From assembly GCF_001650195.1 (NCBI RefSeq), contig NZ_LXYR01000045.1, positions 1-41,538 on the forward strand: DNA of 41,538 nt. Direction: 5' to 3'. Within the stretch, counting starts at the first letter, position 1. Each line of letters begins with the position of its first letter. Source of the stretch: Phormidesmis priestleyi BC1401. GTDB taxonomy: Bacteria; Cyanobacteriota; Cyanobacteriia; Leptolyngbyales; Leptolyngbyaceae. Of the stretch, positions 2,335-14,383 are shown one piece after another. The notes below the pieces were generated by a model. It was not told the DNA's origin. It saw only the letters and a program-made list of their open reading frames with translations, and searched no databases. The translations under genes and the position numbers were made by a program.

Positions 2335-2464
2335 CTAGCTTTGGTTGCGGATTACACATATCTGCGAGGTGACTTGTATGGTTATACAGACACAAAGCTT
2401 AACGTTCATAACAAACATGTAAAACAGCACTACTCTTACATGGCAGTGGCAGTGAGTAGTCGGT

Positions 2465-3058
2465 ATGAAGATCGTTCAAGAGATTTCTTTAATTAGTATC
2501 GGAAGTTTTGAGGAATCAAGCGATTGGTCCGTTATTCGAGATGAGATTCGCGAAGCTATTTCCCTGATCGTTTATCCTTCTGGCGCAACAAACTTTACAA
2601 TCAACCCAGTCAAACATGGCAATGGTGTCAAACCGATTAAAGAAGCTTGCATGATTGCTCTAAAGGATAGGTTTGGATGGAAACTAGAAACTTCAATCAA
2701 CTATGCGACTCGATCGCCAGGAAAGGTAGATGCAACAAAAGCCCTTGACAACCATCTTTTTGCTCTTGAGTGGGAGACAGGCAACATCTCCTCAAGTCAT
2801 CGAGCAGTCAATAAGATGGTTCTTGGGTTGTTACGGGGTGTTTTATTGGGCGCTGTCCTCGTACTTCCAAGTCGAAAACTCTACCCTTATTTAACTGATC
2901 GAATTGGTAACTATGAAGAGCTAGAGCCGTATTTTGATGTTTGGCGAGCAGTTCGGCTCGAAGAGGGGTTTCTTGCAATTTTCGTGATTGAACATGACCA
3001 AGTAGATGGCAACATACCGACAATTACTAAAGGAACAGACGGTCGTGCATTGATCTAA
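2465..3058 (+). CDS. Type II restriction endonuclease, BglII/BstYI family
   Basis: This gene encodes a 197-residue PD-(D/E)XK nuclease expected to cleave a short palindrome with a GATC core (BglII cuts AGATCT, BstYI cuts RGATCY). The match, judged from memory of BstYI, runs along the whole length: an N-terminal start of the MKIVQEIS type, a DEIREAI helix, a GWK block near residue 72, and the catalytic stretch. In that stretch Asp89 (VDATK) and the pair Glu102/Glu104 (ALEWETGN) line up with the BstYI metal-binding Asp, Glu and Gln. The helix VNKMVLGLLR, a strand GAVLVLP and the YEEL region follow, also as in BstYI. The size agrees with that family (about 200-220 residues). The gene converges on a methyltransferase gene, leaving 17 nt between the two stops, which is the expected company of a type II enzyme. 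The exact recognition site is not deducible. Confidence 0.85.
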   Translation: MKIVQEISLISIGSFEESSDWSVIRDEIREAISLIVYPSGATNFTINPVKHGNGVKPIKEACMIALKDRFGWKLETSINYATRSPGKVDATKALDNHLFALEWETGNISSSHRAVNKMVLGLLRGVLLGAVLVLPSRKLYPYLTDRIGNYEELEPYFDVWRAVRLEEGFLAIFVIEHDQVDGNIPTITKGTDGRALI

Positions 3059-3075
3059 ATGTTTCTATGCAAGAG

Positions 3076-4062
3076 CTATGTAGAGTAAGGAATGGGCAGT
3101 TGTGAGACCGTCACTCTTCGCTTCTTTAGTTTTTTGTTTCCCCTCGCTGACTCCCATTGCTCAATGATTCCATTCGCTAAGTCAGTCAAACGTTCTATTG
3201 CTGGCTCTGTGTCCCCAATTTCCGAACCAATCCAATAACGGTGAAGTTTTTCTGCTGCGTAGAACGTAGTACCAGAACCCCCGAATGGATCAACTACAAC
3301 TTGACCTGGATTAGATGCCATAGCAATAATCCGTTCCATCATGATAGGAGCAAGTTCGTTAGGAACTCGCTTTTTATGGCGACGATGCCGAACGGGTGGA
3401 ATATCAGTCCACATTTCCTCTGCTAGCGCCCACAACACTTCGTTGGGATCAGTTTCAGGGGCATCTTCCCAAACATCTTCTGTCATATCCCAGACATCCA
3501 TTAGATTGATACCTTTTTCATTAAGGCTTTTGCGATGTCCGCCATAATCACGAATTTCTCCGCTACAATGCCGACAAACTTGAATAGGTGTATAGATTTT
3601 ATTGAAAACTGCTGGCTCCCCTTTTGTGTAATAGATTAGCCCGTAGTGAGCGGGAGACATTTTCTTACCTCTAGGAAAAGCTTTCGGCATCCTGCAAGCA
3701 ATCCAGTGTCGAAACCACATTCCTTTTTGATTGAGATATGCTCCATACTCTATGCACCATCTAGGCAGGTTGAATACAAATAAACTTCCACCAGGTTTAA
3801 GCACTCGGACGCTTTCATCAAGCCATTGTTGCGACCAAGCTAAATACTTCTCGATCTCCATGTGATCACTAATCCCTTTTCCATACTCTTTTCCGATGTT
3901 AAAGGGCGGGTCGGCAAATACAACATCTACAGATTCATTAGGTAACGCTGAAAGAAGTTTGAGGCAATCTCCTTGATAGAGAATGCCATGCTCACTTTTA
4001 TAAACCTGTTGTAATTCCTGTTGAGTCGCTAAATCAAGTGAGATCGCTTCAAGTGGGTGCAT
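3076..4062 (-). CDS. Site-specific DNA methyltransferase (beta class, N6-A or N4-C)
   Basis: This 328-residue SAM-dependent DNA amino-methyltransferase should protect host DNA from the neighbouring endonuclease. The catalytic motif IV is DPPF at residues 51-54, near the N-terminus. The SAM-binding motif I is at the C-terminal end (DPFGGSGTT, about 258-266). That order (IV, target recognition region, I) defines the beta class. The middle region carries a lone CxxC (163-166) and probably holds target recognition. DPPF is more common in N6-adenine enzymes, but BglII-type partners are N4-cytosine enzymes, so the modified base is open. It follows the small HTH gene by 44 nt on the same strand and converges with the endonuclease gene. 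There is no sign of damage. Confidence 0.93.
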   Translation of the reverse strand: MHPLEAISLDLATQQELQQVYKSEHGILYQGDCLKLLSALPNESVDVVFADPPFNIGKEYGKGISDHMEIEKYLAWSQQWLDESVRVLKPGGSLFVFNLPRWCIEYGAYLNQKGMWFRHWIACRMPKAFPRGKKMSPAHYGLIYYTKGEPAVFNKIYTPIQVCRHCSGEIRDYGGHRKSLNEKGINLMDVWDMTEDVWEDAPETDPNEVLWALAEEMWTDIPPVRHRRHKKRVPNELAPIMMERIIAMASNPGQVVVDPFGGSGTTFYAAEKLHRYWIGSEIGDTEPAIERLTDLANGIIEQWESARGNKKLKKRRVTVSQLPIPYST

Positions 4063-4106
4063 TGATTTAGCCTCTAGTACTTTGGTATAGCTTGAGCTTA
4101 CAGACT

Positions 4107-4355
4107 CTATTTACGATTGTCAATAGAGCCTTCCGTAGGAGTTGTACTACGTGGTTGATAAGGTCTTCCAGTAGGTTGATTCTTATAGTTCTCTAATTCA
4201 GCAGCTTCTATGTAGTAGTAACGCCCTAGCTTACAAGCTACGATCTGACCATTTTTAATCAGGTCATGAACTCGCTGACGAGTTACATCAAGTGACTTCG
4301 CAGTTTGAGCTACGGAGAGCAATTCAGAGCTATTACTTGAACTGGAGTCTGTCAT
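4107..4355 (-). CDS. Small helix-turn-helix protein, candidate R-M controller
   Basis: This 82-residue protein contains one excisionase/MerR-like HTH (HTH_17 type) at about residues 12-60. The pattern is LLSVAQTAKSLDVT, then RQRVHDLIKNGQI, then a wing ending in YYYIEAAELENY. The last 25 residues are polar and rich in Pro, Thr and Ser. It is transcribed just ahead of the methyltransferase gene with a 44-nt gap. Type II systems often carry a small regulator in this position. Classical C proteins belong to the Xre/HTH_3 fold, so a control role for this one is inference. A recombination-directionality role is the other family function, but no integrase is nearby. Confidence 0.8.
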   Translation of the reverse strand: MTDSSSSNSSELLSVAQTAKSLDVTRQRVHDLIKNGQIVACKLGRYYYIEAAELENYKNQPTGRPYQPRSTTPTEGSIDNRK

Positions 4356-4445
4356 AAGATGGAAGTGCTTCAGTCATTTAACTAGTCTCTTCAAGGTTAC
4401 GCTTGAGGTTAAGTTGTGTGTAAGATAGGCTCAAAAGCTTCATCA

Positions 4446-5504
4446 TTAAACCTCAACTAATTGCGATTCTGTCTCCTCAATCTCTTGCCAGTCGGATTGG
4501 GCTAACCGCTCGATCGCCAGATCAATTAACGCTAATCCCTGCCCGACATTTTCAACTAAGCTGAGTTTTCCGCGCAGATCGGCGGCACCGTCAAACCCTT
4601 TGGCATACCAGGTCATGTGTTTTCGGGCTTGTCTGACTCCCCGATCGCCCTTGTATTCCCACAGCATTTGCAGATGTTCGCGGGCGCATTCTAAACGCTC
4701 GATCGAAGTGGGTTTTAATCTTTCAATCCCAGTTTTCAAAAAGTGATCGACTTCGCCAACTAAGAATGGATACCCCAGCGTTCCGCGAGAACACATTACA
4801 CCATCGGCTCCGGTTTGCTCTAAGCATTTAACGGCGGCTTCAATAGAGAACATATCGCCATTCGCGATGACAGGAATTGAGAGAATTTCTTTCACGCGTC
4901 CGATCCATTCCCATTTGGCGGCTCCATTATAGCCTTGAGCGCGAGTCCGCCCGTGAACGGTGATCATTTTCGCTCCCGCCGCTTCCATTCGTTTAGCAAA
5001 ATCGAGAATGTTGATTTCTTGATCGGTCCAGCCGATGCGAGTTTTGACCGTCACCGGGACGTTGACTGCATTCACCACAGCCCGCACGATCGCTTCTGCC
5101 TTTTCGGGGTCTCGCAGCAGAGAAGAGCCGCCGCCGTTTTTAGTGATTTTGTTCACCGGGCAGCCCATGTTGATATCAACCGTATCGGCTCCTTCTGCGA
5201 CCGCCATTTGTGCGGCTTCTGCTAAAAAGTCGGGGCGACAGTCAAAAAGCTGAATGCTGATCGGACGCTCGTTGGGGTCTACCTCCATAATGATCGGCAG
5301 TTCTTTGACGTAATGTAACCCTGTCGCGTTCACCATCTCGGTGTACATCATCGAATCGGGCGCATAGCGACGTACCAGACGACGAAACACCAGATCGGTT
5401 ACGCCAGACAGCGGCGACTGCAACACCCGGCTTTTGACCTCAAGATCACCGATTTTGAGCGGGGCAGCGAGTCTAGCTTTGAGACTTGGAGACAGAGAAA
5501 CCAT
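4446..5504 (-). CDS. dusB: tRNA-dihydrouridine synthase
   Basis: This 352-residue FMN-dependent enzyme reduces uridines in the tRNA D-loop to dihydrouridine using NAD(P)H. The TIM-barrel family motifs are all present: an N-terminal SPLSGVTD (substrate and FMN face), the catalytic Cys115 in NMGCPVNKI, KTRIGW, the FMN-phosphate motif VHGRTR, VIANGD, and GVMCSRGTLGYP. The length and the first residues after the ATG agree with the DusB/NifR3 branch usual in cyanobacteria. It is a housekeeping gene and stands alone on its strand between the restriction-modification module and a broken ABM-domain gene. Confidence 0.93.
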   Translation of the reverse strand: MVSLSPSLKARLAAPLKIGDLEVKSRVLQSPLSGVTDLVFRRLVRRYAPDSMMYTEMVNATGLHYVKELPIIMEVDPNERPISIQLFDCRPDFLAEAAQMAVAEGADTVDINMGCPVNKITKNGGGSSLLRDPEKAEAIVRAVVNAVNVPVTVKTRIGWTDQEINILDFAKRMEAAGAKMITVHGRTRAQGYNGAAKWEWIGRVKEILSIPVIANGDMFSIEAAVKCLEQTGADGVMCSRGTLGYPFLVGEVDHFLKTGIERLKPTSIERLECAREHLQMLWEYKGDRGVRQARKHMTWYAKGFDGAADLRGKLSLVENVGQGLALIDLAIERLAQSDWQEIEETESQLVEV

Positions 5505-13961: not shown

Positions 13962-14383
13962 CTAGCATTCGTGCTAGCTTAAGTCTCTCCATCGTTCGAC
14001 AGAAACAGATTGATGTCGGCACGCATATTCTATAGGATCCACCGCTATTTCTATGGGTAGAACAAATTAATGTATAGAAAACTACATAACCTGATTCTGT
14101 CACGAAATATCATCCTCGATAGGAATAAATTCGTGCAAGATAGCTTGAACAAACAACCGACAGAAATCAAATGTAAGTATTATGACTTAACCCGTTGCGT
14201 TCCATTTATCAACTGGGTATTCTAGCAACGATCGCATCAAAGACTTGCGACGACTGAGCTTGATCACTGGGAATCTTCTCTCTGCCTTGCCTAGCGATTT
14301 GATAGAGAAAGGTGATTTGAAAAACTTTTGAGCCTGACTGTTGAGTTTTGACCGTTTTTCTTAGACTTCGCTAGATAAAGAAG

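What the first reader, a model, noticed from the sequence alone, without database searches (positions are those of the whole stretch)
2465..4355. Compact BglII/BstYI-like restriction-modification module with its own small HTH protein
A 197-residue endonuclease of the BstYI/BglII type converges (17-nt gap between stops) on a beta-class methyltransferase, and an 82-residue excisionase-like HTH gene precedes the methylase. The recognition site is likely GATC-centred, which is notable in a genome full of CGATCG and GCGATCGC. The HTH belongs to a different fold from the usual C proteins, so control of this system may be unconventional. The lower density of HIP1 sites here suggests transfer from elsewhere.
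Basis: partly seen in the sequence, partly recalled or inferred. Interest (0 to 1): 0.6.

Follow-up and report, generated by a model that had tools for sequence, protein, structure and literature searches.

The report
BamHI-type restriction system in a cyanobacterium
This is a compact DNA-defence pair, a cutting enzyme of the well-known BamHI family and its protective methylase, acquired between two ordinary genes of a cyanobacterium, and the only unusual part is a small DNA-binding protein encoded just ahead of the methylase.

Summary
The three genes are real and placed as described: a 197-residue endonuclease (2465-3058 +), 17 nt, a 328-residue beta-class amino-methyltransferase (3076-4062 -) and an 82-residue HTH protein (4107-4355 -). 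The endonuclease belongs to the BamHI family, not to BglII/BstYI: Pfam BamHI E=1.6e-77, nearest solved relative OkrAI (53-54% identity, Z 28.7); BstYI and BglII share only the wider fold (Z 12.5-17). The residues aligned to BamHI's catalytic and base-contacting ones (roles recalled) are present, so the predicted site is G^GATCC, protected as GGAT(N4m)CC by analogy with M.BamHI. GGATCC occurs 21 times in 5.55 Mb; the BglII site AGATCT is not avoided in a 400-kb sample. The cassette is an insertion: in a congeneric genome the flanking kinase and dus genes are adjacent. The convergent R/M layout recurs in 37 of 37 comparable named cyanobacterial loci; the HTH gene precedes M in 22 of 36. The HTH resembles Xis/BldC/MerR rather than the Xre-type protein of a Bacillus BamHI-like locus; in 194 genomes its three close copies all lie beside this system. 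Its regulatory role is inferred. Ordinary R-M system; modest interest in its control.

The parts
2465..3058 (+). Type IIP restriction endonuclease, BamHI/OkrAI family, 197 aa; predicted site G^GATCC
   Evidence: Pfam PF02923 E=1.6e-77; OkrAI 3odh E=4.7e-62, BamHI 4.4e-30; model pLDDT 90.1, OkrAI Z 28.7
3059..3075 (.). 17-nt gap between the converging stop codons of R and M
   Evidence: the gap is 0-34 nt in the 20 loci, window included, where the script could measure it
3076..4062 (-). Beta-class amino-methyltransferase, 328 aa (DPPF motif IV before the DPFGGSGTT motif I); predicted to make N4-methylcytosine in GGATCC
   Evidence: Pfam N6_N4_Mtase 2.2e-40; PADLOC MTase_II PDLC03238 4.1e-89; 44% identity (residues 17-294) to the 423-aa M of a BamHI-like locus, L048
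4107..4355 (-). 82-aa HTH_17/excisionase-like DNA-binding protein, likely regulator of the H-M operon
   Evidence: HTH_17 3.7e-10, excise TIGR01764 2.9e-7; fold nearest Xis 4j2n and BldC, all E above 0.001; dN/dS 0.18-0.33 against 11 loci
4383..4402 (-). Degenerate copy of a 20-nt element (AGTTACGCTTGAGAATGCAA) found upstream of H in 9 of 18 representative loci; candidate promoter/operator, weak here
   Evidence: score 7.1 here; 13.5-19.2 in the nine
2335..4445 (.). Inserted segment between a sensor histidine kinase gene (973-2334 +) and a dus gene (4446-5504 -)
   Evidence: In G001, same genus, both neighbours are adjacent without it; similarity to other copies of the cassette spans at most 2380-4377

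Best explanation
A horizontally acquired Type IIP restriction-modification system. The 197-residue enzyme dimerises and cuts unmodified G^GATCC in incoming DNA by the BamHI mechanism; the 328-residue methyltransferase methylates the inner cytosine (N4) of the same site and protects the host; the 82-residue HTH protein, encoded just ahead of the methyltransferase and probably on the same transcript, binds the promoter of that unit and adjusts methyltransferase output. Shown by computation: gene families, fold, conserved residues, site depletion, empty site, recurrent arrangement. Inferred: actual cutting and methylation, the N4-C chemistry, co-transcription, and the whole regulatory role of the HTH protein (about 0.6 likely).
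For: Family. Fold: OkrAI TMq 0.89-0.92, Z 28.7; BamHI Z 23.1-24.7; BstYI Z 16.1-17.1; BglII Z 12.5-16.5. Residues aligned to BamHI D94, E111, E113, N116, S118, R122, D154, R155 are invariant in 21 of 21 aligned sequences (window plus 20 loci), that of D196 nearly so (roles recalled). GGATCC: 21 in 5.55 Mb against 144 for the reversed control; 0 in 400 kb against 19.9 (maximal-order Markov) or 90.3 (first order), while AGATCT is 114 against 133.7 and TGATCA 210 against 150.2, first order. Carriers of the family hold fewer GGATCC per Mb than other members of their taxonomic family: stratified permutation p=3e-4, 11 carriers among 108 genomes of the five families that have carriers. Cognate pairing: R and M distances correlate, Spearman 0.91 over 51 loci. 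M.BamHI makes GGAT(N4m)CC (PMC3646050, passages). HTH: 22 of 36 named cyanobacterial loci carry it, 41-66 nt ahead of M; among 194 genomes close copies occur in 3, each beside R.
Against: GGATCC depletion is not specific to carriers: many f28 genomes without R are as poor, and six other hexameric palindromes are also absent from the 400-kb sample. G134 carries a distant family member with the key residues yet holds 567 GGATCC sites; two f28 carriers rank 14 and 25 of 42. The permutation test does not correct for relatedness inside families. The element upstream of H is clear in only 9 of 18 representative loci, is degenerate in this window, and is kept in two loci that lack H, so it may be a plain promoter. 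14 of 36 cyanobacterial loci show no HTH gene at tblastn E up to 0.01. No methylome, no assay.
Confidence: 0.92

Rival explanations
1. The endonuclease is of the BglII/BstYI type with site AGATCT or RGATCY.
For: The wider fold is shared: BstYI Z 16.1-17.1, BglII Z 12.5-16.5; the BamHI-like endonuclease of L048 has a sub-threshold match to the BglII model (E 0.099).
Against: The window protein matches the BamHI model only (E up to 1); identity to OkrAI 53-54% against 16-23% for BstYI and 10-14% for BglII; AGATCT is not avoided in the genome sample.
Confidence: 0.03
2. The HTH protein is not a regulator of the system but a passenger, for example the relic of an integrative element's excisionase carried along with the cassette.
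For: Its nearest fold is a phage Xis (E 0.008); 14 of 36 cyanobacterial loci lack it, and on the M tree its presence needs six changes.
Against: Purifying selection (dN/dS 0.18-0.33, 11 loci); constant place 41-66 nt ahead of M in 23 loci, window included; H distances follow R and M distances (Mantel p=0.001, 22 loci). No integrase was looked for.
Confidence: 0.28
3. The system is decayed or silent in this strain.
For: Stop codons inside R or M in 6 of 40 related loci; the H-M upstream element is degenerate in the window.
Against: All three window frames are open, R and M are under strong constraint (dN/dS 0.05-0.11), and GGATCC is rare in the genome.
Confidence: 0.1

Closest known systems
OkrAI (PDB 3odh), BamHI isoschizomer
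   Same: Length (194 against 197 aa), fold (Z 28.7), 53-54% identity over the whole protein
   Different: Its gene neighbourhood was not examined here; its paper is not held, so what is known of it beyond searches is recalled
BamHI R-M system (as seen in the BamHI-like locus L048, Bacillus haynesii)
   Same: Endonuclease family, methyltransferase family, predicted site
   Different: L048 has M (423 aa) and R divergent with a 72-aa Xre-type (HTH_3) gene before R; here R and M converge, M is 328 aa without the N-terminal extension, and the small gene is HTH_17 ahead of M
MADS protein MAD1 and HTH domains linked to methyltransferases
   Same: An HTH_17-like protein linked to a methyltransferase; weak matches to mad1 (4.6e-4) and to the N-terminal part of a 727-position MTase_II model (0.0062)
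   Different: Weak similarity only; no other MADS gene was sought

Membership tests
BamHI family endonuclease (PF02923) | Sequence match above the curated cut-off | tested here: met
   259.1 bits against 22.8
BamHI family endonuclease (PF02923) | Catalytic D94/E111/E113 and base-contacting N116, S118, R122, D154, R155, D196 (roles recalled) | tested here: met
   Aligned residues D89, E102, E104, N107, S109, R113, D145, R146, D192 in the window protein
BamHI family endonuclease (PF02923) | BamHI fold | tested here: met
   OkrAI Z 28.7, BamHI Z 23.1-24.7
BamHI family endonuclease (PF02923) | Cleaves G^GATCC | not testable with these tools
   Only indirect: GGATCC depletion
BglII (PF09195) / BstYI | Sequence match to the BglII family model | tested here: not met
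   No PF09195 match at E up to 1; no BglII or BstYI chain by phmmer at E up to 1
BglII (PF09195) / BstYI | Shared wider fold | tested here: met
   BstYI Z 16.1-17.1, BglII up to 16.5, well below OkrAI
M.BamHI-like N4-cytosine methyltransferase | Beta-class motif order and N6_N4_Mtase domain | tested here: met
   PF01555 2.2e-40; DPPF precedes DPFGGSGTT in the sequence
M.BamHI-like N4-cytosine methyltransferase | Methylates the inner C of GGATCC at N4 | not testable with these tools
   Reported for M.BamHI (PMC3646050, passages); here by homology only
C (controller) protein of R-M systems | Xre/HTH_3 fold (recalled as typical) | tested here: not met
   HTH_17/excise; fold nearest Xis and BldC, weakly; the L048 gene is HTH_3
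C (controller) protein of R-M systems | Controls transcription of R and/or M | not tested
   Only a sequence element at H in part of the loci, not shared by R

The most novel reading that the evidence does not exclude
In cyanobacteria the BamHI-type system uses, in place of the Xre-type gene of a Bacillus relative, a dedicated excisionase/MerR-like protein in the methylase operon, which times methylase and hence restriction in a convergent layout where read-through control of R is impossible: a second, independent solution to the establishment problem for the same enzyme family. (Probability lowered from 0.35 to 0.30 on re-checking: the upstream element is clear in 9 of 18 representative loci, not in most.)
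Probability: 0.3. Interest if true: 0.42.

Novelty: new member of a known kind. Interest (0 to 1): 0.25.

Why it matters
The predicted specificity corrects the site to test and suggests that BamHI sites on incoming DNA would be restricted in such strains. The same endonuclease family is found with two different kinds of small HTH gene and two gene layouts, so it offers a natural comparison of how R-M systems time protection and attack. Otherwise it adds a member to a classical family.

Tried and rejected
BglII/BstYI membership: rejected. Shared operator of H and R: the element upstream of H (log-likelihood 124.8 with 40 starts, against a maximum of 68.7 in 15 shuffled sets with 15 starts each) does not clearly recur upstream of R; 5 of 39 R regions pass the shuffled 95% level of 5.2 (L008, L027, L034, L035, L059) and only L035 (11.3, opposite strand) the 99% level of 6.6. 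A likeness by eye of TAC-T-CTTG upstream of R to the H element was dropped for that reason. The idea that the separate HTH equals the N-terminal extension of the 423-aa M in L048: no HTH family was found in that extension at E up to 5; left open. Phages and viral contigs: no relative of R in 50,697 phage records; in IMG/VR five stretches matched one of six peptide patterns and none was a relative. Plasmids: 4 records, all under 60% identity. Insertion mechanism: no inverted repeats of 14 nt or more and no flanking duplication seen. Sigma-70 consensus scan of the cassette: 1 site against 3.8 in shuffles. Literature: searches for C.BamHI with controller protein (0 papers), for excisionase, MerR and restriction-modification (1 paper, by its title on Klebsiella phages), for Nostoc BamHI isoschizomers and for cyanobacteria with GGATCC and R-M or palindrome avoidance (listings only) showed me no description of this three-gene arrangement; the library lacks most subscription papers and REBASE. 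Rows dropped: the R alignment used 20 of the 56 loci plus the window, L029 and L031 having been left out for stop codons, with the others chosen for spread; the motif model used 18 of 23 upstream regions, chosen by eye to lessen near-copies; distances and tree left out L014, L045, L057 and loci without M; dN/dS used 13 chosen loci, of which H gave a value in 11, R in 13, M in 12; the depletion test used only the five families with carriers.

Full report
Observation. Pfam gives BamHI (1.6e-77), N6_N4_Mtase (2.2e-40) and HTH_17 (3.7e-10).

Endonuclease. It is a BamHI-family enzyme. The nearest solved sequence is OkrAI (4.7e-62), then BamHI (4.4e-30); no BglII or BstYI chain was matched by sequence at E up to 1. 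An AlphaFold2 model from 21 sequences (pLDDT 90.1) matches OkrAI at TMq 0.89-0.92 and Z 28.7, BamHI at Z 23.1-24.7, BstYI at Z 16.1-17.1 and BglII at Z 12.5-16.5. The residues aligned to BamHI D94, E111, E113 (catalysis) and N116, S118, R122, D154, R155, D196 (base contacts; roles recalled) are D89, E102, E104, N107, S109, R113, D145, R146, D192; the first eight are invariant in 21 of 21 aligned sequences and the last nearly so. BamHI has 213 residues and is aligned to its residue 198, so this enzyme lacks the BamHI C-terminal extension, as the 194-residue OkrAI does. The predicted site is G^GATCC.

Methyltransferase. Motif order is that of the beta class. It is 44% identical over residues 17-294 to the 423-residue M of L048, a Bacillus haynesii locus with a BamHI-like endonuclease. 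M.BamHI makes GGAT(N4m)CC (PMC3646050, passages read), and two Bacillus velezensis strains with BamHI/BamHIM show cytosine modification at 99.4% and 98.3% of GGATCC sites (PMC6873887, passages read; that paper's footnote takes the mark as m5C). N4-C here is by homology.

Site depletion. The genome (5.55 Mb, 213 contigs) holds 21 GGATCC, one of them in the window at 14035, against 144 of the reversed control word. In 400 kb (the first 20 kb of contigs 1-20) GGATCC is 0, expected 19.9 by the maximal-order Markov estimate and 90.3 by first order; AGATCT is 114 (133.7) and TGATCA 210 (150.2), first order. So among GATC-centred hexamers only GGATCC is missing. Caution: AGGCCT, CGGCCG, GACGTC, GCATGC, GCCGGC and GGCGCC are also absent, so palindrome avoidance is general here. 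Across genomes, R occurs in 3 of 58 relatives, the window's own included, and in 9 of 386 of the phylum, own included; GGATCC counts are. In the five families that hold carriers (108 genomes, 11 carriers) carriers have fewer GGATCC per Mb: medians 3.78 against 37.84 in f1, 0.96 against 3.27 in f28, 2.03 against 12.0 in f29, 1.59 against 77.25 in f27, but 171.8 against 113.0 in f32; stratified permutation p=3e-4. This does not correct for relatedness inside families. The f32 carrier, G134, has a distant member (43% identity, key residues present) and 567 sites; in f28 two carriers rank 14 and 25 of 42.

Acquisition. In G001, of the same genus, the matches to the histidine kinase (89% identity) and to Dus (94%) end 31 nt apart with no cassette between; in the printed junction the two stop codons are about 10 nt apart. 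In G019, of another genus of the family, the two are also adjacent. So about 2.1 kb (2335-4445) was inserted. CGATCG poverty and lower G+C agree. No inverted repeats were found.

Distribution and layout. The search for related loci returned 56 loci. In 37 of 37 named cyanobacterial loci with R at 70% identity or more and M on the contig, R and M converge; H lies ahead of M in 22 of the 36 whose region upstream of M is on the contig (L014 ends inside M); absence means no tblastn match at E up to 0.01. Of the other 19 loci, five converge too (L037, L043, L044, L046, L047; in L043 the two lie more than 1 kb apart), ten have M divergent from R (nine Bacillota, one deltaproteobacterial record) and four show no M (L036, which ends at the contig edge, L039, L042, L054). 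In L048 an Xre-type HTH_3 gene of 72 codons precedes R. R and M distances agree (Spearman 0.91, 51 loci; 0.84, 37 cyanobacterial loci), and H follows them (0.63-0.66, 22 loci, Mantel p=0.001) (window included). On the M tree the presence of H needs six changes against 16.8 in shuffles, so H has been lost or gained several times.

HTH protein. It is an HTH_17/excisionase-like protein; its model is of middling confidence (pLDDT 72.2) and is nearest to phage Xis 4j2n (E 0.008) and BldC, all above E 0.001. It is under purifying selection (dN/dS 0.18-0.33, 11 loci), less strict than R and M (0.05-0.11). In 194 genomes three close copies were found (E below 1e-30; G000, G100, G174, the last with one TGA inside the match), each within about 2 kb of R; six other matches were weak (E 7e-5 to 4e-4). 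Whether the other R carriers were among those 194 the listing does not show. A 20-nt element lies upstream of H with a high score (13.5-19.2) in 9 of 18 representative loci, a middling one (9.3, 9.9) in two and a low one (7.1 or less) in seven, the window among the latter (7.1); it is kept directly upstream of M (13.7) in L005 and L011, which lack H. It is not clearly found upstream of R. The most likely reading is a promoter/operator of the H-M unit that H binds; it could equally be a promoter that needs no H.

Verdict. A new member of a classical kind, with an unusual but untested small regulator.

Noticed in passing
   Followed up: partly
window genome, 400-kb sample L060-L079: Many GC-rich six-base palindromes are absent or nearly so (AGGCCT, CGGCCG, GACGTC, GCATGC, GCCGGC, GGCGCC at 0), which suggests several past or present R-M systems.
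   Followed up: no
L004, L009, L019 (M) and L013, L029, L031 (R): Internal stop codons in the methyltransferase with an open endonuclease frame in three loci, and in the endonuclease in three others; sequencing error not excluded.
   Followed up: no
L054:5001-5264: A second, partial BamHI-family fragment (59% identity, residues 3-88) on another scaffold of Drouetiella hepatica.
   Followed up: no
L026:2388-3428: In Aphanizomenon flos-aquae the cassette lies one gene away from a dus gene (83% identity to the window's), although the immediate neighbour differs; coincidence or a favoured region.
   Followed up: partly
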